The notes under the pieces: model-generated
Told to the model about the DNA's origin: nothing
The model's database searches: none
The model's input: the letters and a program-made list of their open reading frames with translations, nothing else
Translations under genes and position numbers: made by a program
In this document: in pieces, positions 17,054 through 55,631 of the stretch
Layout: each line of letters begins with the position of its first letter
Numbering within the stretch: position 1 is the first letter of the stretch
IMG/VR virus record: IMGVR_UViG_3300031839_001436
Coordinates: 1-59,929 of that record
Reading direction: 5' to 3' (one strand)
Length of the DNA: 59,929 bases
Origin: a virus

Positions 17054-17081
17054 ATTATAATCGCAAAAGCTTTAATGTCAA
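17054..17081 (-). promoter_or_regulatory. Late promoter for terminase-portal operon
   Basis: TTGACA, 16-base spacer with CTTTTGCG, TATAAT on the minus strand. The spacer is nearly the same as in the capsid promoter at 4366-4393. A variant ATCG-N4-CGAT site (CGTATTCGAT, 17083-17092) touches the upstream side of the -35. Confidence 0.85.
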
Positions 17082-17107
17082 GCGTATTCGATAAATTAGC
17101 TATCATA

Positions 17108-17566
17108 TCATCCTACCCGCTTTAACATCGCGTTCAATTTGGCACGTTCTGACTTGGGAATGTCTGGCACGGCTTCCAATCCTGCTAGTCCACGCCGCGC
17201 CATTTTGGTTAGCATTTCCGCATAATGTACAATCAGTTGTGTAACAGGGATATTCAAATAGTACGATTCGCTTAACATCTTCATGGTTTCGTGCTCATCT
17301 TGGAGCGACTTATCATCCGTTCCAAACTTGACACGTCCCTTTAAGTGCATAAGCAGTAAGTAGATTTTCCAATCAAGGTCGTTAAAGTCTAAATCATAGC
17401 GACGCGCCCGGTATAAATCATCGTCAAACGGGTATGGGGTCTTGTTCACAATATGATTGAGTACCATTTGTTCAGTCGGTCTAGCTGTTGCGCTGTAATA
17501 TTCACCATTCCATAGACGGTCTGTACGTAGGATAAAGCCATGTCGTGTAGGGATGTATTGCTTCAT
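17108..17566 (-). CDS. Hypothetical protein, end of early block
   Basis: The 152-residue basic protein MKQYIPTRHGFILRTDRLWN... is coupled to the membrane miniprotein upstream by a TTATGA overlap. Soluble, helix-rich, unrecognised. It is the last gene before the late promoter. Confidence 0.65.
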   Translation of the reverse strand: MKQYIPTRHGFILRTDRLWNGEYYSATARPTEQMVLNHIVNKTPYPFDDDLYRARRYDLDFNDLDWKIYLLLMHLKGRVKFGTDDKSLQDEHETMKMLSESYYLNIPVTQLIVHYAEMLTKMARRGLAGLEAVPDIPKSERAKLNAMLKRVG

Positions 17567-17721
17567 AATAGATAATCCGATACTAATAATCCGATGATTA
17601 GCCCAAGTACAAATATGATCTTTTCGCGCTTGGATAGGGATTGCGTCGGCTCACCAAAAATGACAGATAATAACTCGGATAACATAAGCTGATAGATTTG
17701 CCTGATAAGGTTTTTTAGCAT
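17563..17721 (-). CDS. Small membrane protein (52 aa)
   Basis: The frame MLKNLIRQIYQLMLSELLSV... ends in a hydrophobic helix (KIIFVLGLIIGLLVSDYLL). GAGGA lies upstream of the ATG and the stop overlaps the next start. A C-terminally anchored inner-membrane miniprotein of unknown function. Confidence 0.65.
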   Translation of the reverse strand: MLKNLIRQIYQLMLSELLSVIFGEPTQSLSKREKIIFVLGLIIGLLVSDYLL

Positions 17722-17731
17722 ATATCCTCTA

Positions 17732-18064
17732 TCAACCATATAAAAACTTGTAATGAGGTGTATTCCATTGGATTAAATCACTAAACGGCTTACCGTCTAT
17801 AGTAAAGTTGGCAGGGGATAGCATAACCATTAGCTTATCTTTCCCAGCCCAATCTACATGGGTAAAACAATCTAGTTTAGCAGTATCCGATTCTCTATCA
17901 ATGACTGCACAAATAATCACATTCCATTCACCGTACAATTCAAATATTTTGCACTCTAATGTCGCATCATATTTGTTTTCAATCTTGATCGCTTTGCCGT
18001 TCATTTCTTCAAACAATTTGATGTTGTGTTTATTTAATAGCTCACGTTCAAACATATATCCCAA
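17732..18064 (-). CDS. Hypothetical protein
   Basis: This is 110 residues from 18064, or 107 from the second ATG (MFERELLNKHNIKLFEEMNG...). Mixed alpha/beta with an internal CAVIDRESD segment and no recognised domain. It lies between the phosphoesterase and a membrane miniprotein. Confidence 0.65.
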   Translation of the reverse strand: MGYMFERELLNKHNIKLFEEMNGKAIKIENKYDATLECKIFELYGEWNVIICAVIDRESDTAKLDCFTHVDWAGKDKLMVMLSPANFTIDGKPFSDLIQWNTPHYKFLYG

Positions 18065-18088
18065 CTTATCCCAATTTATCCAAAACGA

Positions 18089-19222
18089 TTACTTATATAG
18101 CTTATTCGATTCGTTATCATGCGACAATTGAACCTTGTATGTATCGCTGCCATTCATCGCGTAAATATGGCTGCCATCACGGTAGTATTCCAAATCGTAC
18201 ATTTGGGCGTTACCCGTCTGTGTATCCAGTATGCAGAATCCCAGCGATTGATTCCAATTTGACGTATGCTTACCTAACTTTGTTTGATAGTGTGGATTCA
18301 AATCGCACCGACAACCAACAACCATACTATGTCGTCTGAATAGCTTTGACGTGTGACTAAAGTAATCGCTCCTATGGGTATGCCCTGCTACATGGTGGAC
18401 GCTGTTATCACGTGATAGCATCGTCGCGGCTGTGTGCTTACTGATACCGCCGTCATGTCGGATGAATAACGTATCCAGTAGCAATTCTTGCGTTAAACCT
18501 AGATAGTGTACCGTACCCTCATTACGTACCATGCTGATAAACTGCTCAATCAGCAATCGTGGCGCGTCACTTTCTAACGCCATATCGACAAACCGTCTAT
18601 CATGGTTTCCATAGATAAATGGGATAAGTGGGGCGCCACCAACACTAGCCAGTAAATCCGTATCGTATCTGTAATCCCGTTCCACGTTGTAATACACATC
18701 GTCAAAGCTTGGATTGTTCCGTAACTCATAATCCGGTTGGTGGCGTGATATAGTCGGAAAATCAAACACATCACTACCATGTACAATAATGTCTGCCCCA
18801 ATGTCGCGCATAATCACATGGTCTAATGCAATCGCATCTTTATCATGAAACGGGATATGCTTGTCAAACGGAAAGAAGACGGTAATGAATCGCTTACGCT
18901 GCTTTAGGTCGTTATACCGCTTGTTAAAGTCGTCTGTATCATGGTTTCCACCTGTTAACGACCGGATAGCGGTTGGTTTTACACTTTGCTTTAGTTTTGG
19001 TAGGGGGTCGTCTAAATCATGAGGGGATTTCGGAAACTCAATCGGGGCTTTGGTCGCTGTTTGTTGCGATTCCCACTCTATCAGGGCTTTGTATTCGGAT
19101 ATACCACCCCGTACACCAGATTCGCTACGGTCATAGTAGTTGGCTATATCAACGTCGTTCCAACCCTCGCATCGCTTCTCATAGAATTCACGTGCTAATT
19201 GCCTAACATATGGTTTCGTCAT
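18089..19222 (-). CDS. Calcineurin-like metallophosphoesterase with N-terminal HTH-like region
   Basis: This 377-residue protein contains the metallophosphoesterase motifs in order: HGSDVFDF (~140), YGNHDRR (~205) and VAGHTHRSD (~279), binding two metal ions and hydrolysing phosphodiesters or phosphomonoesters. Residues 1-60 (FYEKRCEGWNDVDIANYYDRSESGVRGGI) look like an HTH. Such HTH-phosphoesterases are frequent in phages and may act on nucleic acids or nucleotides; the substrate is unknown. It has its own promoter with two operator sites. Confidence 0.88.
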   Translation of the reverse strand: MTKPYVRQLAREFYEKRCEGWNDVDIANYYDRSESGVRGGISEYKALIEWESQQTATKAPIEFPKSPHDLDDPLPKLKQSVKPTAIRSLTGGNHDTDDFNKRYNDLKQRKRFITVFFPFDKHIPFHDKDAIALDHVIMRDIGADIIVHGSDVFDFPTISRHQPDYELRNNPSFDDVYYNVERDYRYDTDLLASVGGAPLIPFIYGNHDRRFVDMALESDAPRLLIEQFISMVRNEGTVHYLGLTQELLLDTLFIRHDGGISKHTAATMLSRDNSVHHVAGHTHRSDYFSHTSKLFRRHSMVVGCRCDLNPHYQTKLGKHTSNWNQSLGFCILDTQTGNAQMYDLEYYRDGSHIYAMNGSDTYKVQLSHDNESNKLYK

Positions 19223-19241
19223 AGACCCTCACAACACAAAA

Positions 19242-19260
19242 AGATACCGTTATGGTATCT
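19242..19260 (-). promoter_or_regulatory. Leader hairpin with U run
   Basis: In the minus RNA, AGATACC-ATAAC-GGTATCT is a perfect 7-bp stem followed by TTTTTGTG, then GAGGG and the ATG of the phosphoesterase. It looks like an intrinsic terminator placed between promoter and gene. Confidence 0.75.
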
Positions 19261-19270
19261 CTACTAGAAC

Positions 19271-19315
19271 ATATTATCATGAATCGTTTTCGATGTCAAA
19301 TTTATCGTATTCGAT
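19271..19315 (-). promoter_or_regulatory. Promoter with two ATCG-N4-CGAT operators
   Basis: TTGACA (minus; 19294-19299), 17-base spacer, TAATAT (19271-19276). One operator (ATCGAAAACGAT, 19283-19294) fills the spacer, and a second (ATCGAATACGAT, 19304-19315) lies just upstream of the -35. Confidence 0.85.
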
Positions 19316-19318
19316 TTG

Positions 19319-19555
19319 TTACTGCGGTAAAATACTAATCGGTCTTTCGTACTTTTCTATAGTCATCTTGCAAATGCGATAGAACTGTCTTAGCTGATCG
19401 ATTGGTTCTTTATCGATACTGCCAAACATTTTATCAAAATTAACCTTATGGGCTGGATGTAACTTTTCCATTTCGGCTTTTACAAGCTCAATCGCATACT
19501 CTTTGAGTTTGTTATCAAATTCGTTTAAACTATCTTGATATATATTTTTATTCAT
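19319..19555 (-). CDS. Hypothetical helical protein
   Basis: 78 residues, charged and helical (MNKNIYQDSLNEFDNKLKEY...). It belongs to a run of small genes between the XRE regulator and the phosphoesterase. No domain recognised. Confidence 0.65.
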   Translation of the reverse strand: MNKNIYQDSLNEFDNKLKEYAIELVKAEMEKLHPAHKVNFDKMFGSIDKEPIDQLRQFYRICKMTIEKYERPISILPQ

Positions 19556-20469: not shown

Positions 20470-20748
20470 TTACCCTTTCAATATCTTCACTGATTCATGC
20501 GCTATCTTTTCGAGTGTCTTTGTGTCGATTCGCTTTAATTCATCGTCACTGGATGCCAAGAACATAAGCATCATTAACGGTACATCTAGCGCGTCTGATA
20601 CGCTTTGTAGTACCGACATGGTAGGGTCACGTTTACCGCTTTCCACTTTCGATACGTGCGATATGCTGATATTCGCGCGTTGTGCGAGTGTCGTTTGATT
20701 CCAGCCGCGTTGGGTGCGACACACCTTAATTGCTTTACCGACGTTCAT
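20470..20748 (-). CDS. XRE-family HTH regulator
   Basis: The likely start is the ATG at 20748 (MNVGKAIKVCRTQRGWNQTT...), coupled to the preceding stop, giving 92 residues. Residues ~5-60 form a full XRE/Cro-CI helix-turn-helix (RTQRGWNQTTLAQRANISISHVSKVESGKRDP). The C-terminus is a short helical tail. It is a second candidate, besides the 37136 repressor, to bind the dispersed operators. An in-frame extension to 20859 overlaps the upstream gene and is unlikely. Confidence 0.88.
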   Translation of the reverse strand: MNVGKAIKVCRTQRGWNQTTLAQRANISISHVSKVESGKRDPTMSVLQSVSDALDVPLMMLMFLASSDDELKRIDTKTLEKIAHESVKILKG

Positions 20749-20963
20749 GATTCGTGTCCCCGTAGATATTTGGCTAATTCTGCGATTGTTGCAAGTCGAT
20801 TCACGCTGCCATATTGCCATGCGCCAAAATAGATAGGCGTAACATTCCACTGTTCGCATAATTCGAGTAATTCAGCGTTGCCCGGATTATGTGCCAGAAC
20901 GCTGATGAATAGCTTTTGCCGTAATACATGCTGGTCTGTCCATAGGTTGCTATTTGGGGTCAT
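20745..20963 (-). CDS. Hypothetical protein
   Basis: Starting at the coupled ATG 20963 (MTPNSNLWTDQHVLRQKLFI...), it is 72 residues; a longer frame from 20999 exists but overlaps the upstream gene. Two CEQW/YFGAW-type aromatic motifs but no recognised domain. The stop overlaps the XRE start. Confidence 0.65.
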   Translation of the reverse strand: MTPNSNLWTDQHVLRQKLFISVLAHNPGNAELLELCEQWNVTPIYFGAWQYGSVNRLATIAELAKYLRGHES

Positions 20964-21083: not shown

Positions 21084-21410
21084 CTAATCATCCCAATCAC
21101 CTAGCATTGCATCATCAAAGTCTTTATCAAATTCCATCACAACATTATTCTGTGCTTGCGATGTTCCTACGGTTGTTAAATCCACTGATTCAAACCGATT
21201 AGCAAGCTTTGTAAACTTGTCTGCCAATTGCCCTAGATACCGTGTAATACCGGATTCAGTTATAGGCGTTTTGCCTTCAAAATCGATAACGGCACTAAAA
21301 ATCATGTCATAATGAATATTCTTATCTTGCCATCCTTCAATGATTTCACGCGCCATTTTTTCGGCTTCGCTTGGGTTTTTACGCCACCGGATAGAAAAAA
21401 CGTCTGCCAT
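21084..21410 (-). CDS. Putative ParR-like partner of the actin protein
   Basis: The 108-residue protein starts MADVFSIRWRKNPSEAEKMA and lies 2 bases downstream of the ParM-like gene. ParM systems encode the small DNA-binding adaptor ParR in that position. Basic/helical N-terminus and acidic C-terminus are compatible with an adaptor, but there is no clear ribbon-helix-helix signature, so this is mostly positional inference. Confidence 0.55.
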   Translation of the reverse strand: MADVFSIRWRKNPSEAEKMAREIIEGWQDKNIHYDMIFSAVIDFEGKTPITESGITRYLGQLADKFTKLANRFESVDLTTVGTSQAQNNVVMEFDKDFDDAMLGDWDD

Positions 21411-21412
21411 AA

Positions 21413-22459
21413 CTATTTCACACCTTTGCGCTCATAATATGCTAGTAATTTCTTAGCACCGTATACATTCGCTTTTTGCATCTCTTGCCCTGATTTGGGT
21501 ACAACAGCACCATAAACACCATGTCGCCATCGATTGTTGATTTTCATACGTTCTATGATTCGATGATAAAGCAATTTTGTGCCGCCGCCCGTTAAAAGCA
21601 CGTTGTCCAATAGCGCACCGCCGTATTGTTCATATCGTGCTATCACAGCATCAACTAGCATTGAACACGATTCGTTTGATTCTTTTTGGACATCTAGCAT
21701 CCCAAAAGCACCCGCAGAATAGAACCCATCAATAAGTGCGGCTCGAATCTTACGCGCATCTAAATCACGTGCTGAACTTAATTCACGTGGGTATCGTGAA
21801 ATAATCGCGCTTGTAAAATCTTCAATGGTGTCAATAATGTTGCGTTCTGTGAAGCTGCGCGCAGACCCAAAATCAGGTTTTTGCCCCTCAAGGATAATGT
21901 AATCGGTTGTTAACCCCCCAATATCGATTACAAGTGTGTCACCTCTATTCAACCCGATGTCTTTAATCTTGTAACCTTTATCGTCCATTAAGCGATTCAT
22001 CGCACCACCTACAGGCTCATACCATGTTTTAACAGTCTTAACGCTAAACTTCTTTTCTTTTCCGGCGTGTTCAACCGTTACATCACCTAATGCAATTCGT
22101 TTAATCGTGTCTTTGTAAGCATTATCTTTCGGGGGCAAACTGGCATACAGAAAAATATTCTTAGTGCTTTTCTCAAACATCTGATAAAATGCCACACCTA
22201 AAAAACGCTTATAGTATTCAGGTGTGTATCGTTGCGCCCCTTCGTAACGAACAGAGCCGAAATCGTTAGCTCTATCCCCAATTGCATAAGGAACACCATC
22301 GATTAAATAAATACCACTTGTATCATCCTGAGAAACAAGCTCATTGTATTTATGAGTGCTGATTCGTGCGCTTGCGTGTGCAAAATCCACTTCGCAATCG
22401 ACACTTAACCCTTTTTCGCGTTCATTACCGTTATCCCAAACAACATCTTTTACGTTCAT
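21413..22459 (-). CDS. ParM-like actin-family ATPase
   Basis: The start at 22459 (MNVKDVVWDNGNEREKGLSV...) has CGAGGGA upstream; an in-frame ATG at 22477 is less likely. The 348 residues include actin-fold nucleotide motifs: phosphate-2 DIGGLTTDYI (~186) and adenosine-loop LLTGGGTKLL (~295). The phosphate-1 loop is poorly conserved (DNGNE). The archaeal Ta0583/ParM/Alp group shows this pattern. Such proteins polymerise and push apart DNA copies or position phage DNA. The promoter region holds ACGATAA half-sites. Confidence 0.8.
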   Translation of the reverse strand: MNVKDVVWDNGNEREKGLSVDCEVDFAHASARISTHKYNELVSQDDTSGIYLIDGVPYAIGDRANDFGSVRYEGAQRYTPEYYKRFLGVAFYQMFEKSTKNIFLYASLPPKDNAYKDTIKRIALGDVTVEHAGKEKKFSVKTVKTWYEPVGGAMNRLMDDKGYKIKDIGLNRGDTLVIDIGGLTTDYIILEGQKPDFGSARSFTERNIIDTIEDFTSAIISRYPRELSSARDLDARKIRAALIDGFYSAGAFGMLDVQKESNESCSMLVDAVIARYEQYGGALLDNVLLTGGGTKLLYHRIIERMKINNRWRHGVYGAVVPKSGQEMQKANVYGAKKLLAYYERKGVK

Positions 22460-22480
22460 AATCCCTCGTGTATACATCCT

Positions 22481-22529
22481 GTAAACTGACGTTTACGATA
22501 AGTATACAACCTTTACGATAAATAAGCAA
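22481..22529 (-). promoter_or_regulatory. Promoter and leader hairpin of the ParM-like gene
   Basis: TTGCTT (22524-22529), 17-base spacer, TATACT (22501-22506) on the minus strand. TTATCGTAAA occurs twice (22512-22521 and 22492-22501), and the leader hairpin GTAAAC-GTCA-GTTTAC is at 22481-22496. Repeats at a ParM gene's promoter are where a parC centromere would be expected. Confidence 0.7.
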
Positions 22530-22585
22530 GCTTATAAGCTTAGTATTACAGCTTATAAACCTACTTCCTACGGCAAAAAATGCCT

Positions 22586-25928: not shown

Positions 25929-26144
25929 CTATTGCACCGCTTTCATGATGCAATTCAAATCGTATGCCTTGCTACGGCTAATCATAGGCATTACATATTC
26001 TGCGAGGTTGAACCACTCCGTGTTATAGGGTTGGTTCGCATCCCCTATATCGTTGATGGCTAATACAAGCCAGTCACAAGCGTTATCCCATCGTTGCTCA
26101 TGAATCGCGGTAATGGCTTCATTGATAAGGTCTTGATTAAACAT
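25929..26144 (-). CDS. Hypothetical protein behind a stoperator-like site
   Basis: 71 residues, Trp-rich and helical (MFNQDLINEAITAIHEQRWD...). Between the stop of the helicase-methyltransferase and this ATG lies a full ATCGAATACGAT site. Confidence 0.65.
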   Translation of the reverse strand: MFNQDLINEAITAIHEQRWDNACDWLVLAINDIGDANQPYNTEWFNLAEYVMPMISRSKAYDLNCIMKAVQ

Positions 26145-26160
26145 TTTCGATTTATCCTTT

Positions 26161-26172
26161 ATCGTATTCGAT
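26161..26172 (-). promoter_or_regulatory. Intergenic ATCG-N4-CGAT site (stoperator-like)
   Basis: ATCGAATACGAT (minus) lies in a 27-base gap between co-directional genes, overlapping the upstream stop codon. No promoter is visible around it. Confidence 0.75.
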
Positions 26173-28415
26173 TAGTTAGCTTGCAACAAAGAAAACATGT
26201 CAATCTGTTTGTTTTTGGTGGTCGCTTCTGCTAAGTTGCGAACAGCCACGCTATAATATTCGGGCTTCAATTCGATGCCGTGATACTTGCGACCCCGTAG
26301 AATCGCCTGATACCCCTCACTGCCGATGCCACCAAACGGACTAAATACGGTTTCATCGGGGTTGCTCCACAATCTAACACAACGATCAATTAAGGGTAGC
26401 TGCAATGGGCACATGTGTTTTTCATCTTCATTCGCTTTACCCACGCGAACATTAAGTACGTCGGTTTCGCTGATGTCATACCAAACAGCCCGTGCATATT
26501 GAATCCAATCTTCTTGAGACACTTCCCCGTTCAACACAGGTGTAACAGGAATAGGATTGTCACCGGGCTTATCGAATAGCAGTAGATAATCTGTGTTCAT
26601 AGGGACAGAACTGGCACTATCACGCTTAAGAGTAGCGAACAATAAATCTGTATCTTTTGTGCGAATCGCTAGTGCTTGTGGGTTCTTGTCAATCGTCACA
26701 CGACCGCGCCAAATCCAACCCGCATTAACGTATTCTTCTATGACACGTCCTGAAAAATCTACTAACCCACGATACCCATCACGAGTGGCTAGCGTCCGCA
26801 ATTCCGATACATGGACGCAAGCGCGACGACCGGGCATTGTGACTCGTAAGTTTTCACGGATGATATAGCGGTAGTGTTCCATGAATTCATCGTAATCCTT
26901 GCTGTTACCAATGTCACGATTCGTATTGCTATATACAAACACATCATTAAACGGGGGACTGTACACCGATAAGTGAATACTGTTATCTGGTATGTCTCGC
27001 ATCCGTTCCACAGAATCACCTAACCACATCTTATAATCATCAGTTTCGGTTTCGTCCGTCGCATATACAAAAGCACTATCGTCAAGTGTCATATCGTTTT
27101 TCACCTCACTATTTAAAGCCATATGTTGGATAAGTTTTGTTCTCATTTCTGATGCCTTGCGGTCTTTCTCGAAGATTGTTTCTACAATCCCTAACTCATG
27201 TTCCGATGTGATAATGGTCACGTCTACAACGTCACTTTGTTGACCGTAGCGACAAATACGACCAATACCCTGATAGAATTGTTCCCAACTGTAATCAATA
27301 CCAAACCACACCATATTTTTACAATTCTGCATGTTTACACCCATGCCTGCGATTTTGGTCTTGCTAATCAAGATGCGTATATCGCCATTCACAAACTTAC
27401 GGATTGCATCGATTTTATCATCCGGTTTCATGCTACCTGTGACATTAACCGCGTCTGGTAACAAACTATCTAGCAGTTCGGATTCTTTGTTCAAGCCACA
27501 CCATATGATGTATTGTTCGTTGGTCTGATTCACAAACTCAACTAGCAGGTTAGCCCGTTGCTCTATCGATTCGCGTCGTATCCGCTTTGCGTCGGTTGCG
27601 CTAATCTGCAAATCTTCAAAGCCTGCTAATTTACCATCCTGACGGAATGCTGTATCAATCGTAATCGTTTCATAATTGACGCAGGGTTTAATAAATCCAT
27701 CGTCCGAATACCCTAAATCACTAGGTTTTTCGAGTGCGATAGACCATGATGCTAACCAGCGATAGAACGCATTAACAGCATGTTTTTTAAGTCGCCATGC
27801 ACCGTTACGCAATTGCGAATCGTGTACAAAGAATGTACTCAACATTTGTGAGTGTTTCATCACACCTAAAAATTCTGCATGGTTTCCGATTTCTTCAATG
27901 TCATTGGGCGCGGGGGTAGCTGTTGCACATAACCGGTAGGGGGTATCTTTGAATTGTTCAATCAGAGCATTACGCATCTTGCCTGTTAGATTCTTGAGGA
28001 TAGATGATTCATCTAAGATCACAACTTCAAAATCATCAGCATTAAACTTGTCTACCATCTCATAGTTCGTGATGTAGAACTTGCATTCATCGAATCGCAG
28101 GTCTTTGGAGCTACGGACGTAACGAACATCCATATCAATCAACTTGTGCAATTCATCAATCGTCTGATGGGCAACGGCAAGCGGGGATATAATCAATGTT
28201 GGTAAATCGATTTGACGCGCAAATTCTCCCAGTTGGCAAGTTTTCCCAAGTCCAACATCTTCAAACAACGCTACACGACCACGCTTAATAGCCCACTTTG
28301 TTATGTCGCGCTGGTAATGGAATAATGTTGGATGAATCGCAGATAGCGGTACATCAAAACCAACATCCTGAACAGTAAACTCTTTACTCTTTAAAAACTC
28401 GATATAATCTTGCAT
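26172..28415 (-). CDS. SNF2-type helicase fused to DNA methyltransferase
   Basis: 747 residues. The N-terminal half is a superfamily 2 helicase: DVGLGKTCQLG (motif I, ~53), VILDESSILKN (motif II, ~131), ATATPAPND (III) and YQGIGRICRYGQQSDVVDV (VI). The C-terminal ~280 residues are an amino-methyltransferase: catalytic SPPFND (~484) and SAM-binding FSPFGGIGSEGYQAILRGRKYHGIE (~695), a beta-class order (catalytic motif first). The fusion resembles phage DNA-modification proteins and type III/ISP restriction enzymes without the nuclease. Probably it methylates phage DNA against restriction; target unknown. Promoter at 28444-28472. Confidence 0.9.
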   Translation of the reverse strand: MQDYIEFLKSKEFTVQDVGFDVPLSAIHPTLFHYQRDITKWAIKRGRVALFEDVGLGKTCQLGEFARQIDLPTLIISPLAVAHQTIDELHKLIDMDVRYVRSSKDLRFDECKFYITNYEMVDKFNADDFEVVILDESSILKNLTGKMRNALIEQFKDTPYRLCATATPAPNDIEEIGNHAEFLGVMKHSQMLSTFFVHDSQLRNGAWRLKKHAVNAFYRWLASWSIALEKPSDLGYSDDGFIKPCVNYETITIDTAFRQDGKLAGFEDLQISATDAKRIRRESIEQRANLLVEFVNQTNEQYIIWCGLNKESELLDSLLPDAVNVTGSMKPDDKIDAIRKFVNGDIRILISKTKIAGMGVNMQNCKNMVWFGIDYSWEQFYQGIGRICRYGQQSDVVDVTIITSEHELGIVETIFEKDRKASEMRTKLIQHMALNSEVKNDMTLDDSAFVYATDETETDDYKMWLGDSVERMRDIPDNSIHLSVYSPPFNDVFVYSNTNRDIGNSKDYDEFMEHYRYIIRENLRVTMPGRRACVHVSELRTLATRDGYRGLVDFSGRVIEEYVNAGWIWRGRVTIDKNPQALAIRTKDTDLLFATLKRDSASSVPMNTDYLLLFDKPGDNPIPVTPVLNGEVSQEDWIQYARAVWYDISETDVLNVRVGKANEDEKHMCPLQLPLIDRCVRLWSNPDETVFSPFGGIGSEGYQAILRGRKYHGIELKPEYYSVAVRNLAEATTKNKQIDMFSLLQAN

Positions 28416-28436
28416 AAACCTTTTCCTTTATCGTAT

Positions 28437-28472
28437 AAGCTTTATTATAAAGCTTTTTTGATTAGTTTGCAA
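28437..28472 (-). promoter_or_regulatory. Promoter with palindromic -10 for helicase-methyltransferase
   Basis: TTGCAA (28467-28472), 17-base spacer, TATAAT (28444-28449) on the minus strand. The -10 lies in the palindrome AAGCTTTA-TAA-TAAAGCTT (28437-28455). An ATCGTAT half-site follows at 28430-28436. Confidence 0.7.
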
Positions 28473-30401: not shown

Positions 30402-30595
30402 GATTGATTATCCTTGTGCATTCCTAGTTCAGACTCGTAATGGTCAATCTCCGATTCGAGTGCAACTAGCATCTTTTCGCATTCATCGTACCGATTCCGA
30501 TAGGCGCGACTGTGATACCGTGCTAGCCACATGCCATAGTTGGCACACACAACGGCATAATCACGTTCTAATTGTGTTTTGTGGTCGTTATTCAT
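30398..30595 (-). CDS. Hypothetical coiled-coil protein
   Basis: Starting at ATG 30595 (MNNDHKTQLERDYAVVCANY...), 65 residues; the open frame reaches 30604. Helical and charged, between the initiator and primase-helicase, where phages often keep a helicase loader or replisome adaptor. No loader motif is visible. Confidence 0.6.
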   Translation of the reverse strand: MNNDHKTQLERDYAVVCANYGMWLARYHSRAYRNRYDECEKMLVALESEIDHYESELGMHKDNQS

Positions 30596-31523: not shown

Positions 31524-31548
31524 TGTTATCGTCCTTGCTTCGTTATTT

Positions 31549-31560
31549 ATCGTTTTCGAT
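31549..31560 (-). promoter_or_regulatory. ATCG-N4-CGAT site upstream of initiator gene
   Basis: ATCGAAAACGAT (minus) in the 56-base gap between the HTH gene and the initiator start. A weak TTGTCA lies upstream, but no good -10 is seen. Confidence 0.7.
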
Positions 31561-31579
31561 TAGTTCAATTGACAAAATT

Positions 31580-31873
31580 TTATACACATACGCGATTGAG
31601 GCATACATGCGGTGCAGCACGAATAATCCCGTTTTCGTCCGGTTGCGTTGTCACAACAATATATCCAAGTGATTCCAATTCTTTACGAGTTGATTGAACC
31701 TTGCGAACACTCATTTGTGTTTCTTGTGCAATCACTTTATTTGTTTTGGATATACCTTCGATGCAGGGGTGGAATGATTGTAAGTAGTTACAATACAAAG
31801 CCAGTTGATAGGGGTTTAACTCTGCTAGTGCTTCGTTACAGATATTAATGTATTGATTGTTGTCAGTATCCAT
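31580..31873 (-). CDS. Winged-helix/HTH protein
   Basis: 97 residues. Residues ~30-80 (GISKTNKVIAQETQMSVRKVQSTRKELESLGYIVVTTQ) match a winged HTH of the GntR/replication-protein kind. It precedes the replication initiator and may help it or regulate it. Its long leader contains a structured element (31901-31997). Confidence 0.75.
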   Translation of the reverse strand: MDTDNNQYINICNEALAELNPYQLALYCNYLQSFHPCIEGISKTNKVIAQETQMSVRKVQSTRKELESLGYIVVTTQPDENGIIRAAPHVCLNRVCV

Positions 31874-32020: not shown

Positions 32021-32049
32021 ATGATAAAGCTTTTACGATAAAAAATCAA
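32021..32049 (-). promoter_or_regulatory. Promoter upstream of structured leader
   Basis: TTGATT (32044-32049), 17-base spacer containing TTATCGTAAAA, TATCAT (32021-32026) on the minus strand. Confidence 0.65.
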
Positions 32050-32071
32050 GCGTACAAGCTCTGAAAACAAA

Positions 32072-33167: not shown

Positions 33168-33193
33168 GGTTAACCTGTAAATCGCTAATTTAA

Positions 33194-33203
33194 GCGTTTT
33201 CGA
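33194..33203 (-). promoter_or_regulatory. Variant ATCG-N4-CGAT site (stoperator-like)
   Basis: ATCGAAAACG (minus) lies in the 40-base gap between two co-directional genes, without a visible promoter. Confidence 0.55.
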
Positions 33204-33207
33204 TTAT

Positions 33208-33594
33208 TTAAAAAGCTAATTCGCTTAGGTCGTACTGCAAATTTTTATCTGCAATGAACATCGGCGTGATTGTCCGGTTTTTCATCCGGTTTTTGTCAAG
33301 TGTATCAAACTGGATAAGTCCGGTATTTCGCAAGTCCCATACAATCTTTAGCACGGTCGGGCGCGACTTTGCGCTAAACTCGACAATATCGGATACGGCT
33401 AACGATTTACCATGTTCGTTGTACTTCGCACAGATAAAGCACAACACGCGGTAATGTTCCGATGTTAAATCGTGCAGAATCATTGCGTTTAGGAATAGGC
33501 ACGTTAAATGGTCGTATTCAAGACTATCTAGCAAGGTTTCGTCTGATGGATGGTCAATGGTTTCTTGTAACGCTACAATATCAATGGTGTTCAT
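33208..33594 (-). CDS. Winged-helix DNA-binding protein
   Basis: 128 residues. Residues ~40-110 (SEHYRVLCFICAKYNEHGKSLAVSDIVEFSAKSRPTVLKIVWDLRNTGLIQFD) have the MarR/replisome-type winged-helix pattern. It is coupled to the next gene upstream and might be a transcription or replication accessory factor. Confidence 0.7.
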   Translation of the reverse strand: MNTIDIVALQETIDHPSDETLLDSLEYDHLTCLFLNAMILHDLTSEHYRVLCFICAKYNEHGKSLAVSDIVEFSAKSRPTVLKIVWDLRNTGLIQFDTLDKNRMKNRTITPMFIADKNLQYDLSELAF

Positions 33595-36754: not shown

Positions 36755-36755
36755 G

Positions 36756-36929: not shown

Positions 36930-36963
36930 GTTCTAACCTTTCTATCAGTTTTGTTACTAATCT

Positions 36964-37051
36964 AAAAAGTTAATTTACTAAACGTATTCGATTAGTTTAA
37001 AACACAAAAAAAATCGAATACTGTCAAAATTGTACAATAAATTAACTTTTT
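36964..37051. promoter_or_regulatory. Immunity switch region: long inverted repeat with two operators
   Basis: A perfect 14-bp inverted repeat AAAAAGTTAATTTA (36964-36977) / TAAATTAACTTTTT (37038-37051) encloses two ATCG-N4-CGAT-type sites in opposite orientation (CGTATTCGAT 36983-36992; ATCGAATAC 37013-37021) and a minus-strand TTGACA (37023-37028). It separates the leftward early operon from the rightward repressor. I cannot define both -10 elements confidently. Confidence 0.7.
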
Positions 37052-37135
37052 TTGCAAGTATTTATATTATATAGCCTAAAACGCTTGATATATAGTACAA
37101 TAAGCAAAATAAAATATCAGAATATGGGGATAATG

Positions 37136-37474
37136 ATGAAACCGCTTTTTAGTAGAGACAGATTGAGTAATATACGCAATCGGCAAGGATTTACACAAAA
37201 AGCACTAGCTGCAAAGATCAAAGAGCTTTCAGATGCCGAAAGCGACACTATCGATGTAGTGATTAGTCGTCACGAACGCGGTATTATGTCGCCTAGCGCA
37301 GATTATTTGGGGTGGTACGCAAAAGCATTAGGTGTATCCAGTGACTACCTATTAACGTTAACAGATAGCACTAGACCACACGATTTAAGTTATGATGAAA
37401 CGCTCGTCCTTGATGCCTACAGAAACGGAAAATTGGATGAATTGCTTAAGCTCATCCGAAATACCAAAGGTTAA
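37136..37474 (+). CDS. XRE-family repressor (candidate immunity repressor)
   Basis: The best start is 37136 after GGGGA (MKPLFSRDRLSNIRNRQGFT...), giving 112 residues. Residues ~8-70 are an XRE helix-turn-helix (RLSNIRNRQGFTQKALAAKI...VISRHERGIMSPSADYLGWYAKALGVSSDYLL) with an unusually long turn insert. The C-terminus is helical and lacks a LexA-type protease, so induction would not be by RecA self-cleavage. Divergent from the early operon and beside the integrase, as expected of an immunity repressor. Confidence 0.82.
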   Translation: MKPLFSRDRLSNIRNRQGFTQKALAAKIKELSDAESDTIDVVISRHERGIMSPSADYLGWYAKALGVSSDYLLTLTDSTRPHDLSYDETLVLDAYRNGKLDELLKLIRNTKG

Positions 37475-37594: not shown

Positions 37595-37675
37595 TATTCA
37601 ATCTCCCATTATCAGCTAGCACGTTTAATAATTGTAACATGATTTTCAGAAATAGAACGTTTGAGCTTACAAACT

Positions 37676-39280
37676 ATGAATAAAACACCAAAACGCGCCC
37701 TCTTATGGATCGCTGTATCCAGTGAGGAGCAAGCCAGAGAAAACAAAGCCAGTATCCCAACTCAATTAGCTGATGGTAAAAAACGTGCAGAATCAGAGGG
37801 TTGGCAGATTATCGATACCTTGATTAGTGACGGGCATAGTCGGTCATACATCGATATATATGAACTGGCAAAAGACGCGCGTGATAAAGGGATTCATGCG
37901 TTTGATACGCTCATAGACCACCTAAAAAGCAAGCAAGATTTTGACGTTCTATGGTGTTGGAGTGCAGACCGTTTAGGACGCTCGCAGACCATTATCGCAT
38001 TTATTACCGAACACGTGTTTAAATGCGGCGCGTCCATTTATGTTGAATCGGATAAACAATACAAGACAAACGACCGCTTCTTTGCGATGGTAGAAGGATA
38101 TACATCTAGCAAGTTCATTGACGACCTTAAGCGTAAAATTCGCATGGGTCACGAAAACGCGATTGCAAATGGGAGCGCAATCGGCAGAATGCCATCGACG
38201 CATAAACGATTGTATGATGAAAATCATAATGAAATTGGCGTTGGGCTAGCTGATGGGATTGAATTAGAATATGCCCGGTTAGCGGATTTGCTGATTTATG
38301 GTCATGAGGGGCAAAAAATATCGTATAACAAACTTGAACACTACATGTTTGAGATATACGGCTATGGCAAGAATGGCAAACGGCATAGGCGCAACCACTA
38401 CTATTATCGCTTGTGTGCGCCGTCTACATGGGGGCATCTAACATTAGGGCGTAATCGTAAAGGTGCAAAATTAGGTTCATTTAGACGCTATATCGTAGAA
38501 GACGGTCATCCTATACCGGACGGGCTAACCATTGAATACAATGTGTTTCCACCTGTATACACAGGCGATATAGCAGACCGTGTAAAACGGGTCATGTTTG
38601 ATCGCATGTCACAACGTGGCAAGGGAGCGCATAAACCTAAGCGATACACGGGCGTTTTTGTTTGTGCAGAATGTGATAGATTAATGACACACAAACGGAA
38701 TAAAGAAAATCGTGAATATATTTTGTGTGAAGATGCGTACAAACTTTATGCTGATTCGTGCAATAATAAAAAATCGCACAGAATATCTAATGCAGATGAG
38801 TGGGTGTTTGAATGGCTTAATCTGATAGCATCGACGGGGGATATGTCGTATGTTAACCTACCGGATAGCGATGTAAACCGTTTGGAGCTAGACATAGAGG
38901 ATGCACAATCGCGTATTCAAGAACTCAATAACCAGCTAGATAAGTTAATCGATTTACAACTGGATTCTACAGGTGCAATGTTAAGCCGATATATTGAACG
39001 CGGTAACGACATCGCAAATCAAATCGATATATTAAAACAACGGTTATCCGGTATTCAATCTGAGTATCGATTCAAGCAAAAAGATACACAATCGCAACAA
39101 CGGGTTATTCAGACGCTCCAAGATATGGGCGTTAATGGATTTAAGAATGAATCCGCATTACGTCAAAATAGCATCATAAAGGGTATTTTAGGCGATTATG
39201 TACGTATCGGCATAAATAGGAAAGGCGAAATAGGGTTACATCCGTATTCGCAATCTAACAGGCGTAAGCGAAAATACTAG
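37676..39280 (+). CDS. int: Large serine recombinase (integrase)
   Basis: Starting at ATG 37676 (an in-frame TTG at 37661 is possible), 534 residues. The N-terminal catalytic domain has the nucleophile context WIAVSSEEQARENKASIPTQ (Ser ~15) and WCWSADRLGRSQ. The recombinase domain is next, then a zinc ribbon (CAEC...C...C, ~330-370) and a coiled coil (~410-470). This matches phiC31/Bxb1-type integrases, which integrate phage DNA unidirectionally between attP and attB. The attP-like dyad begins immediately after its stop. Confidence 0.93.
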   Translation: MNKTPKRALLWIAVSSEEQARENKASIPTQLADGKKRAESEGWQIIDTLISDGHSRSYIDIYELAKDARDKGIHAFDTLIDHLKSKQDFDVLWCWSADRLGRSQTIIAFITEHVFKCGASIYVESDKQYKTNDRFFAMVEGYTSSKFIDDLKRKIRMGHENAIANGSAIGRMPSTHKRLYDENHNEIGVGLADGIELEYARLADLLIYGHEGQKISYNKLEHYMFEIYGYGKNGKRHRRNHYYYRLCAPSTWGHLTLGRNRKGAKLGSFRRYIVEDGHPIPDGLTIEYNVFPPVYTGDIADRVKRVMFDRMSQRGKGAHKPKRYTGVFVCAECDRLMTHKRNKENREYILCEDAYKLYADSCNNKKSHRISNADEWVFEWLNLIASTGDMSYVNLPDSDVNRLELDIEDAQSRIQELNNQLDKLIDLQLDSTGAMLSRYIERGNDIANQIDILKQRLSGIQSEYRFKQKDTQSQQRVIQTLQDMGVNGFKNESALRQNSIIKGILGDYVRIGINRKGEIGLHPYSQSNRRKRKY

Positions 39281-39359: not shown

Positions 39360-39402
39360 TTGACAACTTATCGAATAAGATTTATAATGAATCGTATACG
39401 AT
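39360..39402 (+). promoter_or_regulatory. Consensus promoter with two operators
   Basis: TTGACA (39360-39365), 17 bases, TATAAT (39383-39388). The spacer holds TTATCGAATAAG (39368-39379), and the perfect palindrome ATCGTATACGAT (39391-39402) covers the start site. One of the best -35/-10 pairs in the window, so it is probably kept silent by the repressor. Confidence 0.9.
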
Positions 39403-39422
39403 AAGTGAAAAGGTTATGGCAT

Positions 39423-40013: not shown

Positions 40014-40054
40014 ACCCAAGTGTAAAATTGTTGTAAAGAATAAAGCTTAAAAGA

Positions 40055-40126
40055 TTGACAATTTATCGAATAAGCTTTATTATATGTATAACTAAACGTT
40101 AAAAGCCCTACGGCAAATAGGGCTTT
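40055..40126 (+). promoter_or_regulatory. Operator-containing promoter plus leader hairpin
   Basis: TTGACA (40055-40060), 17 bases containing TTATCGAATAAG, TATTAT (40078-40083). The leader carries AAAGCCCTA-CGGCAAA-TAGGGCTTT (40102-40126), a perfect 9-bp stem, 11 bases before the ATG at 40138. Confidence 0.85.
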
Positions 40127-40673: not shown

Positions 40674-40728
40674 GCTTTGACGTGTGAAGCGATTCATGCG
40701 GACGCGGGTTCAATTCCCGCCGTTTCCA
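40663..40728 (+). tRNA. Degenerate tRNA-like gene (no canonical D/anticodon arms)
   Basis: Acceptor GGGAGCG pairs with CGTTTCC (two G-U), and the T-arm GCGGG-TTCAATT-CCCGC is perfect. Only 34 bases lie between acceptor and T-arm, instead of ~41. They fold best as one long hairpin, CGTGTGA-AGCGAT-TCATGCG, without a D-arm or a U33-type loop. It could be a pseudo-tRNA or a tRNA-like RNA. Anticodon not assignable. Confidence 0.5.
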
Positions 40729-40731
40729 TAC

Positions 40732-40813
40732 GGGGCATTAGTGTAACGGTAGCACGTCACGATTAACGCCAAAGCGCAACGTGATAGTATCGGTTCAAAT
40801 CCGATATGCTCCA
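40732..40813 (+). tRNA. tRNA-like gene with an 18-nt anticodon loop
   Basis: Acceptor GGGGCAT/ATGCTCC, D-arm GTGT-AACGGTA-GCAC, anticodon stem TCACG/CGTGA and T-arm ATCGG-TTCAAAT-CCGAT are all well formed. The anticodon loop is 18 bases (ATTAACGCCAAAGCGCAA) instead of 7, and includes a mini-hairpin CGC-CAAA-GCG. No encoded CCA. Either an inserted anticodon loop, or an RNA that is not used in translation. Confidence 0.65.
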
Positions 40814-48534: not shown

Positions 48535-48906
48535 CTATCGATTGCGGTTTTTGTGATGGTTTAAGCTCTTAGGATAGTGTATGTTATGGTGATTGTTAAA
48601 TGTATTCTTTTCATGCTTGTAAACATAATGTGCTTGTTCTTGGGGTGTAAACTTCTTATAGCACTTCCAACCGATGGCAAACTTATCGCGGGGTGTCCCT
48701 ATACTGATTTCCATTCCAAACAAACGGATTGGTTGCCAGTCTTGAAACTTTTCAAAGTAGATTGTTGAGTTTGACCCCATTATTTCGTGCAATAATTCAA
48801 CATATGCTGACTCAGACAAAATGAGCTTATCCCCTACGTATTTGCCCTCGTAGGAAGTAGGGCTGTCTAATAACCTATTTCTGATCTCATCAATTAGCCT
48901 TGTCAT
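48535..48906 (-). CDS. Hypothetical protein after the tRNA cluster
   Basis: Start at ATG 48906 with GAGG upstream (MTRLIDEIRNRLLDSPTSYE...), 123 residues. His/Asn-rich C-terminus (NNHHNIHYPKSLNHHKNRNR). It contains KFTPQEQAHYVYKHEKN, and is not recognised. It lies between the tRNAs and the tail genes behind a strong leader hairpin. Confidence 0.68.
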   Translation of the reverse strand: MTRLIDEIRNRLLDSPTSYEGKYVGDKLILSESAYVELLHEIMGSNSTIYFEKFQDWQPIRLFGMEISIGTPRDKFAIGWKCYKKFTPQEQAHYVYKHEKNTFNNHHNIHYPKSLNHHKNRNR

Positions 48907-48924
48907 AAAGAACCTCTTATACAA

Positions 48925-48988: not shown

Positions 48989-49073
48989 CGGAAAGTGTAG
49001 GACTCGAACCCACAAGCCAGTTTCCCGACCACGCCTTAGCAGGGCGTTGCAATAACCATTCTGCCAACTTTCC
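48989..49073 (-). tRNA. tRNA-Ser (anticodon GCT)
   Basis: Acceptor GGAAAGT/ACTTTCC, anticodon stem ACGCC/GGCGT with loop CTGCTAA, long class II variable arm, T-arm GTGGG-TTCGAGT-CCTAC, discriminator G as in tRNA-Ser. Reads AGC/AGU. No encoded CCA. Confidence 0.93.
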
Positions 49074-49076
49074 TAA

Positions 49077-49161
49077 CGGAGAAAGAGGGAGTCGAACCCC
49101 CAAAGGTATTACCCTAAGCCGTTTTCAAGACGGTTTTCGTCGCCAATCGATTTGTTTCTCC
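49077..49161 (-). tRNA. tRNA-Ser (anticodon TGA)
   Basis: Acceptor GGAGAAA/TTTCTCC, anticodon loop CTTGAAA, class II variable arm, T-arm with TTCGACT loop, discriminator G. The first pair of the anticodon stem is an A-C mismatch. Reads UCA/UCG. Confidence 0.9.
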
Positions 49162-49165
49162 TTAA

Positions 49166-49254
49166 GGCTTCTGATGGGACTCGAACCCATACCGTAGGTC
49201 TTAATACTACGGATACCTTATAGGCGTTACGTATGCCATTTCCGCCACAGAAGC
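49166..49254 (-). tRNA. Class II tRNA with unusual anticodon arm (Leu-like)
   Basis: Acceptor GCTTCTG/CAGAAGC, D-arm TGGCGG...GGCATACG typical of tRNA-Leu, a long variable arm CCGTAG/CTACGG, T-arm ATGGG-TTCGAGT-CCCAT. The anticodon region (AACGCCTATAAGGTAT) does not give a canonical 5+7 arm. TAA (Leu) would be the likeliest anticodon, but base 33 would then be A. The next base, C73, could pair with G at -1. Confidence 0.75.
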
Positions 49255-49305
49255 CATCTTGTTTAGACTTGTTAAGTCAAGGTCAAGATTGTTGAAACCT
49301 AGTCT

Positions 49306-49416: not shown

Positions 49417-49444
49417 ATTATAACCGTATTCGATTATATGTCAA
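49417..49444 (-). promoter_or_regulatory. Operator-containing promoter for tRNAs and tail block
   Basis: TTGACA, 16-base spacer TATAATCGAATACGGT, TATAAT on the minus strand, with an operator variant in the spacer. Back to back with the plus promoter at 49497. Confidence 0.88.
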
Positions 49445-49496
49445 GCAAATACGATAATAAATATCCTGTAAAAACTACTTTATTTAGTCAAAAAGC

Positions 49497-49525
49497 TTGA
49501 CAATTTATCGAATACGATTTATACT
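49497..49525 (+). promoter_or_regulatory. Operator-containing promoter for the 49557 cassette
   Basis: TTGACA (49497-49502), 17-base spacer ATTTATCGAATACGATT holding a full ATCGAATACGAT operator (49507-49518), TATACT (49520-49525). Confidence 0.9.
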
Positions 49526-54449: not shown

Positions 54450-54466
54450 ATTCCCTATGAACGCAA

Positions 54467-54565
54467 AAACCCCACCAGTTGGTAGGGTTTCGCGGTTTTG
54501 TTTGATTGCCTACATCACTGTAGGAACATATACATTAATTATAGCACAGTTGTTCGCTATGTCAA
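54467..54565 (-). promoter_or_regulatory. Promoter and leader hairpins of tape measure operon
   Basis: TTGACA (54560-54565), 16-base spacer, TATAAT (54538-54543) on the minus strand. The leader contains CCTACA-GTGA-TGTAGG and then AAACCCTACC-AACT-GGTGGGGTTT (54467-54490) followed by TTGCGTTCATAGGG. The last part matches the capsid operon leader. Confidence 0.82.
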
Positions 54566-54567
54566 AC

Positions 54568-54825: not shown

Positions 54826-54886
54826 TATAACACCTGTAACTATTTTGTTTTCAATAGCATACAGTATGAAGCGTTTACACGCAAAA

Positions 54887-55084
54887 TTAATCGTCGTTGG
54901 TGTATCGATTGCCACCGCGATCAACGTCAAAAGATAAATCAAATCCGTTTTCTAGCGCGTTCTGCATAATCAAAGAACGGATGTAGTCAGATGTTATTGT
55001 GTATCCTTGATTACGAGCTAAGCGTTTAATCGAATCACGCTCTTGTTCTGTAACATTGATAACTACTTGAACCTTTTTAGTCAT
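54887..55084 (-). CDS. Ribbon-helix-helix DNA-binding protein
   Basis: Start at ATG 55084 (MTKKVQVVINVTEQERDSIK...), 65 residues; the in-frame extension to 55204 runs over a promoter and is unlikely. KVQVVINVTEQERDSIKRLARNQGYTITSDYIRSLI is a standard RHH (Arc/CopG) fold, and the tail is acidic. An inverted repeat (GATAAA-5-TTTATC, 55107-55123) between it and the divergent 55206 gene is a good autoregulatory operator. Confidence 0.8.
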   Translation of the reverse strand: MTKKVQVVINVTEQERDSIKRLARNQGYTITSDYIRSLIMQNALENGFDLSFDVDRGGNRYTNDD

Positions 55085-55085
55085 C

Positions 55086-55123
55086 TTGACACACCTGTGC
55101 ATAACTGATAAAATACATTTATC
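55086..55123 (+). promoter_or_regulatory. Promoter with RHH-type operator
   Basis: TTGACA (55086-55091), 17 bases, TAAAAT (55109-55114). GATAAA-ATACA-TTTATC (55107-55123) covers the -10 and start site, divergent from the RHH gene. Confidence 0.78.
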
Positions 55124-55138
55124 GCAATAAAGCGAAAA

Positions 55139-55180
55139 CCCCGATAGGAGTCGGGGAATCCGTATGTGCATAAAGCACAT
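55139..55180 (+). promoter_or_regulatory. Two leader hairpins
   Basis: CCCCGA-TAGGAG-TCGGGG (55139-55156) and ATGTGC-ATAAA-GCACAT (55164-55180) lie between the promoter and the AAGGAG site of the 55206 gene. Confidence 0.7.
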
Positions 55181-55205
55181 GAATCTGTATAAGGAGTTTA
55201 TCATA

Positions 55206-55559
55206 ATGTCTTACGTAACTCAACTACCACAAGGATACAGCAAAAAAGCTTTACAATCAAGCTTATACGCTTTAAAATCTTGTAAAGATTATCTTGTCCG
55301 TGTACACCCGCAATTATCGTTTCTGTTCTCAGAATCGGATGAGGTCGAATGGAGCAAGCAACAAATCCAGTGGACTATCTCTAATGATGTAGCTGCGATT
55401 ATCCACACACCTACGAAAACAAAACTAGAGTTTTTTGATAGCGCACCCGATGAAATATGCGGTGTTCCGTCTCATAATGGGTTGCTCTTTGCAACCATGC
55501 GCCAAATGGAAACATCACGTATAACCGCAATATACTTGGTGTTGATTAGCAATCGATAG
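55206..55559 (+). CDS. Hypothetical protein
   Basis: 117 residues from ATG 55206 with AAGGAG 9 bases upstream (MSYVTQLPQGYSKKALQSSL...). Alpha/beta, unrecognised. It has a dedicated promoter, operator, leader hairpins and terminator, so it is a self-contained unit in the tail region. Confidence 0.72.
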   Translation: MSYVTQLPQGYSKKALQSSLYALKSCKDYLVRVHPQLSFLFSESDEVEWSKQQIQWTISNDVAAIIHTPTKTKLEFFDSAPDEICGVPSHNGLLFATMRQMETSRITAIYLVLISNR

Positions 55560-55576
55560 AGCTTTAGAAAAAGGTT

Positions 55577-55606
55577 CGGGTATGGGAAACCATGCCCTTT
55601 TTTTAT
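55577..55606 (+). terminator. Intrinsic terminator
   Basis: GGGTATGG-GAAA-CCATGCCC followed by TTTTTTT. It separates the 55206 gene from the HNH gene. Confidence 0.9.
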
Positions 55607-55619
55607 GATCTTACAACTA

Positions 55620-55631
55620 ATCGAAAACGAT
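55620..55631 (+). promoter_or_regulatory. ATCG-N4-CGAT site before HNH gene (stoperator-like)
   Basis: ATCGAAAACGAT lies between the terminator and the AAGGAA site of the HNH gene. No obvious promoter around it. Confidence 0.7.

What the first reader, a model, noticed from the sequence alone, without database searches (positions are those of the whole stretch)
17081..55631. Genome-wide ATCG-N4-CGAT operator network (stoperator-like)
A site near ATCGAATACGAT, often followed by AA, recurs almost only between genes. Full or near-full copies: 17083, 19283, 19304, 26161, 31549, 33194, 36983, 37013, 39368, 39391 (perfect palindrome ATCGTATACGAT), 40063, 49423, 49507, 55620; half-sites at 22492, 22512, 28430, 32030, 49448. 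Some fill the -35/-10 spacer of strong promoters; others lie between a stop and the next start with no promoter. That dual placement is known for L5/Bxb1 stoperators, where one repressor silences the genome. Candidate binders: XRE proteins at 37136 or 20470.
Basis: partly seen in the sequence, partly recalled or inferred. Interest (0 to 1): 0.85.

Follow-up and report, generated by a model that had tools for sequence, protein, structure and literature searches.

The report
Paired repressor-type sites across a phage
An uncultured bacterial virus carries about 17 copies of a double DNA landing pad, two mirror-symmetric sites spaced exactly two helix turns apart, at most of its strong switches and at several gene junctions without a switch, which looks like one master repressor silencing the whole virus while it sleeps in its host.

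Summary
An unbiased k-mer and dyad search of the non-coding DNA returns this motif first. ATCG-N4-CGAT has 10 exact matches against 1.3 expected, 7 of them non-coding. The key new fact is that the sites are not single. They come in tandem pairs whose centres lie exactly 21 bp (two helical turns) apart: 9 of 11 independent loci have a partner at lag 21, and flank shuffles give at most 2 at any lag. About 17 pairs occur; 13 related or comparison phages have none. Direct and inverted pairs share the same spacing, so each site behaves as a symmetric dimer site. Eleven pairs are locked in fixed register to a sigma70 promoter, with one site filling the -35/-10 spacer. Six have no recognisable promoter; five of these lie at gene junctions inside operons (stoperator-like) and one in the immunity region. 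The likely binder is the XRE protein at 37133-37474, whose divergent control region carries three sites. The other XRE protein (20470-20859) has none nearby. This is not a Cluster A stoperator system (asymmetric, monomer-bound, non-cooperative), although it may work like one. Binding, repression and elongation block are all untested.

The parts
36956..37028 (.). Immunity-region operator cluster: site pair 36956/36977 (21 bp apart) plus a third site at 37009 (32 bp from 36977), between the repressor gene (+) and the leftward early genes (-). No good sigma70 promoter overlaps the pair itself; a moderate leftward promoter lies just upstream (37057-37029)
   Evidence: PWM scan, composite score 40.5 bits, sequence, promoter scan
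37133..37474 (+). XRE/HTH_3 protein, 113 aa; proposed master repressor and cognate binder. Too short to hold an obvious autoprotease domain
   Evidence: Pfam HTH_3 1.6e-6; PHROG repressor families; location beside sites. Binding not shown
37661..39280 (+). Large serine integrase (context: temperate phage)
   Evidence: Pfam Resolvase and Zn_ribbon_recom, PHROG integrase 3e-30
39366..39406 (+). Pair; upstream site in the spacer of TTGACA-17-TATAAT, downstream site over the start region of gene 39405-40013
   Evidence: (47.1 bits)
40040..40080 (+). Pair; upstream site before -35, second site in the spacer of TTGACA-17-TATTAT
49482..49522 (+). Pair (weak upstream partner) on promoter TTGACA-17-TATACT; further weak site at 49523
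49419..49459 (-). Pair on promoter TTGACA-16-TATAAT facing the tRNA genes and 48535-48924
17056..17096 (-). Pair on promoter TTGACA-16-TATAAT facing 16426-16971 and the structural genes beyond
19279..19319 (-). Pair of two exact cores; one in the spacer of the promoter of 18089-19222
22484..22544 (-). Triple array (22484/22504/22525) on promoter TTGCTT-17-TATACT of the ParM-like gene 21413-22477
28426..28466 (-). Pair on promoter TTGCAA-17-TATAAT of the helicase-methylase gene 26172-28415
32024..32064 (-). Pair on promoter TTGATT-17-TATCAT upstream of 31580-31873
4368..4408 (-). Weak pair (14.3 bits) on promoter TTGACA-16-TATAAT; single site at 4441 on the other side
55235..55275 (+). Pair on promoter-like TTTACA-17-TAAAAT, inside predicted ORF 55164-55559; uncertain
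26136..26176 (-). Promoter-less pair between 26172-28415 and 25929-26144; ribosome-binding site between the sites, ATG inside the second site (stoperator-like)
   Evidence: promoter p=0.33
31524..31564 (-). Promoter-less pair between 31580-31873 and 30588-31523; strongest single site (25.3 bits), second site degraded where it holds the ribosome-binding site
   Evidence: p=0.39
33189..33229 (-). Promoter-less pair between 33208-33594 and 32925-33167
   Evidence: p=0.69
18074..18114 (-). Promoter-less pair at the junction of 18089-19222 and 17732-18064
   Evidence: p=0.19
55616..55656 (+). Promoter-less pair ahead of 55647-56540; ribosome-binding site between the sites, ATG in the second site
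   Evidence: p=0.37
20470..20859 (-). Second XRE protein; no site within its own upstream region; less likely binder

Best explanation
The sites are the dispersed operators of one phage repressor, most likely the 113-aa XRE protein at 37133-37474. Inferred mechanism: a repressor dimer binds each ~20-bp palindrome (half-site about AYTWATCGWW). Two dimers bind side by side on the same face of the helix, 21 bp centre to centre, so a degenerate second site is tolerated. At 11 promoters one dimer fills the -35/-10 spacer and its partner lies either upstream of -35 or over the start of transcription, which would shut RNA polymerase out. At five gene junctions without a recognisable promoter, inside leftward operons or ahead of the last rightward gene, the same pair would act as a roadblock to polymerase that has leaked past the promoters. 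Three sites between the repressor gene and the early operon would autoregulate the switch. Shown: the motif, its enrichment, the 21-bp pairing, the promoter register, the two placements. Inferred: the binder, the cooperativity, the repression and the roadblock.
For: De novo enrichment. Lag test: mean partner score +9.8 bits at 21 bp against -16.9 +/- 3.1 at other lags; 11 of 13 sites, 9 of 11 loci; shuffle maximum 2. 17 composites above 20 bits at lag 21 against 3, 1 and 0 at lags 20, 22 and 11, and none in 13 related or comparison phage genomes. Both halves of the lag-21 partners match (2.4 and 2.9 of 4, expected 0.98) and direct:inverted is 9:8 with identical spacing, so the sites are dyad-symmetric. 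-35 sits at +15 or -6 from the pair start, a difference of 21, so one site always fills the spacer (19279 shifted by 5 bp); spacers are 16-17 bp, so a MerR-type activator is not needed. Sites flank the XRE gene. Temperate genes: serine integrase, ERF, SSB.
Against: No homologue of the XRE protein was found, so motif and recognition helix cannot be compared across phages. The XRE structure model was unusable (pLDDT 41). Three strong promoters (6836+, 54538-, 7884-) carry no pair, so control is not universal. Promoter-less pairs might overlap promoters of a kind not scored. Cooperativity is inferred only from spacing.
Confidence: 0.72

Rival explanations
1. A pure initiation-repressor network: the promoter-less pairs control weak or non-sigma70 promoters and do not stop elongating polymerase.
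For: All strong pairs but one sit in non-coding gaps, where weak promoters could hide; 18074 has a TATAAG -10-like sequence and 36956 lies next to a moderate leftward promoter.
Against: Best sigma70 scores at these pairs are 4.7-6.9 bits and not better than shuffles (p 0.19-0.69), in sharp contrast to 8.7-14.8 at the others; in the promoter register two of them hold a ribosome-binding site where -10 would be.
Confidence: 0.4
2. The binder is a host regulator (LexA-like or other), the phage having tuned its promoters to it.
For: Host unknown; host-controlled prophages exist; a palindromic ATCG-N4-CGAT site is compatible in form with a host dimeric repressor.
Against: No comparable network in genome contigs: composite pattern hits are isolated, and the loci held around them show no further pairs of note. 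21-bp pairing beside the phage's own XRE gene points to the phage protein.
Confidence: 0.08
3. The binder is the second XRE protein (20470-20859), another phage DNA-binding protein, or both XRE proteins on shared sites (CI/Cro style).
For: It is a good HTH_3 protein; Cro-like proteins often share operators with the repressor.
Against: No site near its gene; its putative recognition helix differs from that of the 37133 protein (sequences).
Confidence: 0.15
4. The repeats are centromere-like partition sites of the ParM-like system, not operators.
For: ALP_N actin-like gene 21413-22477 with a small downstream gene and a triple array in front.
Against: Pairs are locked to -35/-10 elements at 11 promoters over 50 kb; parC-type centromeres are compact arrays (general knowledge).
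Confidence: 0.04

Closest known systems
Cluster A mycobacteriophage (L5/Bxb1) operators and stoperators
   Same: 20-30 sites through the genome, some in promoters and most between genes, repressor close to early promoters (PMC6550527, PMC9283540)
   Different: There: 13-14 bp sites without dyad symmetry, monomer binding, no cooperativity, orientation essential. Here: ~20-bp palindromes in fixed 21-bp pairs, direct or inverted; repressor short (113 aa)
Phage P1 C1 operators
   Same: 22 repressor sites dispersed over the genome (PMC8546580)
   Different: P1 sites are asymmetric 17-mers, not constant-spacing pairs of palindromes
SPbeta MrpR and SPBRE
   Same: One master repressor binding a repeated element in many intergenic promoter regions; serine recombinase phage (PMC10516654)
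   Different: MrpR is a tyrosine-recombinase-fold protein with a 15-bp motif in about ten promoter regions; no paired 21-bp arrangement reported in the passages read
Restriction-modification controller (C) proteins, e.g. C.Kpn2I
   Same: Small regulator binding a box of two dimer sites as two dimers; C.Kpn2I blocks elongating RNA polymerase (PMC6237814), a precedent for a dimer-of-dimers roadblock
   Different: One local control region, not a genome-wide network; not a phage immunity system
Lambda-type CI operators
   Same: Palindromic sites, neighbouring dimers assumed to cooperate, divergent repressor/early promoter region (general knowledge)
   Different: Lambda has a few sites at two promoters; here about 17 pairs genome-wide

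Membership tests
Cluster A stoperator system | Many sites distributed through the genome, both in promoters and in short intergenic gaps | tested here: met
   About 17 pairs, 11 with and 6 without promoter
Cluster A stoperator system | 13-14 bp site lacking dyad symmetry, bound by a monomer | tested here: not met
   Symmetry tested: both halves conserved in partners not chosen by symmetry; direct and inverted pairs share the 21-bp spacing. Monomer binding itself not testable here
Cluster A stoperator system | Single sites without cooperative arrangement | tested here: not met
   Constant 21-bp pairing
Cluster A stoperator system | Site orientation follows transcription | tested here: inconclusive
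   Most of the stronger sites point with transcription by eye, but partners are mixed (9 direct, 8 inverted pairs); not formally tested
Cluster A stoperator system | Repressor bound at promoter-less sites stops elongating polymerase | not testable with these tools
   Needs transcription assays
Cluster A stoperator system | Repressor related to L5 gp71 / Bxb1 gp69 | tested here: not met
   No tblastn match of the 140-aa ORF that holds the 113-aa protein in 50,697 phage records at E 1e-5
Dispersed-operator phage immunity (general kind) | Phage-encoded DNA-binding repressor next to its own sites | tested here: met
   HTH_3 protein 37133-37474 beside three sites
Dispersed-operator phage immunity (general kind) | Repressor binds the sites and silences lytic genes | not testable with these tools
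   Needs gel shift, DAP-seq or lysogen RNA-seq
MerR-type spacer-binding activator | Site in an over-long (19-20 bp) spacer | tested here: not met
   Spacers with sites are 16-17 bp

The most novel reading that the evidence does not exclude
An independently evolved stoperator system: a small, dimeric XRE repressor that uses one standard part, a two-dimer palindromic operator of two helical turns, both to block initiation in promoter spacers and to stop elongating polymerase at gene junctions. This would show that elongation-blocking immunity is not confined to the monomeric, asymmetric Cluster A repressors.
Probability: 0.4. Interest if true: 0.75.

Novelty: new variant of a known kind. Interest (0 to 1): 0.6.

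Why it matters
The best-studied phage immunity system proposed to stop elongating polymerase genome-wide uses unusual asymmetric monomer-bound sites. A palindromic, paired, helically phased network in an unrelated phage would separate what matters for genome-wide silencing (dispersed sites at promoters and gene junctions) from what is peculiar to Cluster A (asymmetry, orientation). The 17 pairs, with and without promoters, form a ready-made set for testing cooperative repression and roadblocking. The promoter-operator modules (site, TTGACA, site, TATAAT within about 45 bp) are compact, tightly repressible promoter parts.

Tried and rejected
Relatives of the repressor and integrase in viral contigs, and of the repressor in genome contigs and phage records: no relatives, except two weak integrase matches (Anoxybacillus phage A403) in phage records. 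Helicase-methylase relatives (L001-L003) share only that gene and little else; of the two with whole contigs read, neither has the network. Operator-promoter pattern in viral contigs: four hits, one site each, mostly in what look like coding stretches, taken as chance. Composite pair pattern in viral and genome collections: 86 stretches; those examined are isolated. L021 has one good pair beside a small XRE gene but only that pair in 102 kb. AlphaFold of the XRE protein alone: pLDDT 41, discarded; no PDB sequence relative. MerR-type activation rejected on spacer length. RNA hairpin or anti-terminator reading set aside: stem of 4 bp at most, symmetry broken in many copies, and the phasing is of DNA sites relative to promoters. 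Phage-RNA-polymerase promoter reading set aside: copies sit inside sigma70 spacers. Partition-site reading judged unlikely (rival list).
Full report
WHAT WAS CLAIMED.

ATCGNNNNCGAT occurs 10 times against 1.29 expected. With an A/T-only centre there are 8 exact copies, 7 non-coding, although only about 10% of the window is non-coding. A search that did not assume the motif (all 6-8-mers and all 4-mer dyads in non-coding DNA) returned it first: ACTAATC, AATCGAA, ACGATAA, CGAATACG, and the ATCG-N4-CGAT dyad. A leave-locus-out PWM gives 17 non-coding and 7 coding hits at 10 bits, a 24-fold difference in density, and shuffled non-coding DNA gives 0.36.

THE SITES ARE PAIRED. A PWM scan showed start-to-start distances of 21 bp again and again. 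I tested this with only the 13 strict non-coding cores (ATCGWWWWCGAT, at most one mismatch), a symmetric PWM built without the locus being tested, and every lag from 10 to 70. Mean partner score was +9.8 bits at lag 21 and -16.9 +/- 3.1 elsewhere; 11 of 13 sites had a partner above 5 bits at lag 21 and none or one at any other lag. Counting independent loci, 9 of 11 have the partner; in 300 flank shuffles no lag ever exceeded 2. Scanning for two sites 21 bp apart gives 17 places above 20 bits; lags 20, 22 and 11 give 3, 1 and 0. At 31528 the degraded half holds the ribosome-binding site of the next gene.

EACH SITE IS SYMMETRIC. The partners at lag 21 were not chosen for symmetry, yet both halves match the ATCG half-site (2.4 and 2.9 of 4, expected 0.98). 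By the asymmetric PWM, 9 pairs are direct and 8 inverted, all at the same 21 bp. An asymmetric, monomer-bound site would be expected to shift its spacing between the two arrangements. The flanks ACTA and TAGT extend the palindrome to about 20 bp, so neighbouring sites nearly abut.

TWO PLACEMENTS. Scoring sigma70 promoters on the downstream strand splits the pairs cleanly. Eleven have a promoter (8.7-14.8 bits, shuffle p up to 0.02), and -35 begins at +15 (eight pairs) or -6 (two pairs) from the pair start. These differ by 21, so one site fills the 16-17 bp spacer and the other lies either before -35 or over the start; 19279 is shifted by 5 bp. Six have none (4.7-6.9 bits, p 0.19-0.69): 18074, 26136, 31524, 33189, 55616 and 36956. 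The first five sit at junctions between genes read in the same direction, close to the next start codon. The sixth is in the immunity region next to a moderate leftward promoter. Two promoter-bearing pairs are weak or doubtful (4368, 14.3 bits; 55235, inside a predicted ORF).

THE PHAGE AND THE BINDER. The window is an IMG/VR virus record, 42-43% GC, host unknown. It encodes a serine integrase, ERF, SSB (named from its sequence), primase-helicase, helicase-methylase, portal, terminase, a tape-measure candidate and a ParM-like actin. Of two XRE proteins, 37133-37474 faces the early operon across a region with three sites (36956, 36977, 37009; spacings 21 and 32 bp, two and three turns). The protein at 20470-20859 has no site in its upstream region. 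At 113 aa the first is too short for an obvious LexA-type cleavage domain (inference from size). Its AlphaFold model was unusable.

COMPARISON PHAGES. No relative of the repressor was found in viral, genome or phage-record collections. Terminase relatives (38-48%) gave eleven contigs of 30-68 kb, and two helicase relatives were added. None has a single 21-bp pair above 20 bits, against 17 here, and apart from a GC-rich artefact in G015 their best dyad p-values are about 1e-6 against 8e-14. One of them, G013, has small paired-site sets of its own: AACTAACGTTAGTT twice as a 33-bp pair with one site between promoter elements, and CGTATACGATTAAACGTATACG-like sites near gene starts. This is only a lead.

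MECHANISM. I favour a master repressor whose dimers bind in neighbouring pairs on one face of the helix, excluding polymerase at promoters and probably roadblocking it at gene junctions. The roadblock step has a precedent in C.Kpn2I, a two-dimer regulator that stalls elongating polymerase (PMC6237814). Everything past the sequence patterns is inference.

KNOWN SYSTEMS. Cluster A repressors bind 20-30 asymmetric 13-14 bp sites as monomers without cooperativity (PMC6550527, PMC9283540). Defining features were tested and are not met, so this is not filed there, though it may work similarly. P1 C1 has 22 dispersed asymmetric operators (PMC8546580). SPbeta MrpR binds a 15-bp repeat in about ten promoter regions (PMC10516654). 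I found no report of a genome-wide network of palindrome pairs at a constant 21 bp, but the literature held is partial. Verdict: a new variant of dispersed-operator immunity.

Noticed in passing
36755-36930 (-): Small gene of about 58 aa (ATG near 36930) ahead of SSB, not in the listed ORFs (below the 60-aa limit); first gene of the leftward early operon.
   Followed up: partly
6836-6865 (+), 54538-54565 (-), 7884-7911 (-): Strong sigma70 promoters (two with perfect -35 and -10) carrying no operator pair; candidates for genes active in the lysogen or under other control.
   Followed up: partly
21084-22477 (-): ParM-like actin gene (Pfam ALP_N) plus small downstream gene in a phage that also has a serine integrase; the triple operator array sits at its promoter.
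   Followed up: partly
40663-40813 (+): Rfam tmRNA match (69 bases spanning the whole model) directly before an unusual 82-base 'tRNA-Ala(CGC)'; possibly a tmRNA-like or degenerate RNA gene.
   Followed up: no
48989-49255 (-): Three tRNA genes, Ser(GCT), Ser(TGA) and Tyr with an odd ATA anticodon, behind an operator-controlled promoter.
   Followed up: no
Record G013 (L144-L146): 14361/14394, 17105/17138, 2910, 4447, 42101: A relative by terminase and portal has two small paired-site sets of its own: AACTAACGTTAGTT pairs 33 bp apart around promoters, and GTATAC direct repeats 14 bp apart near gene starts.
   Followed up: partly
L021:1196-1228: Isolated tandem pair matching this motif (42.8 bits) at the end of a small XRE gene and just before a TTGACA promoter; only this pair in 102 kb.
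   Followed up: partly
4368 and 4441: Two sites 73 bp apart (about 7 turns) in a divergent promoter region, an exception to the 21-bp rule.
   Followed up: no
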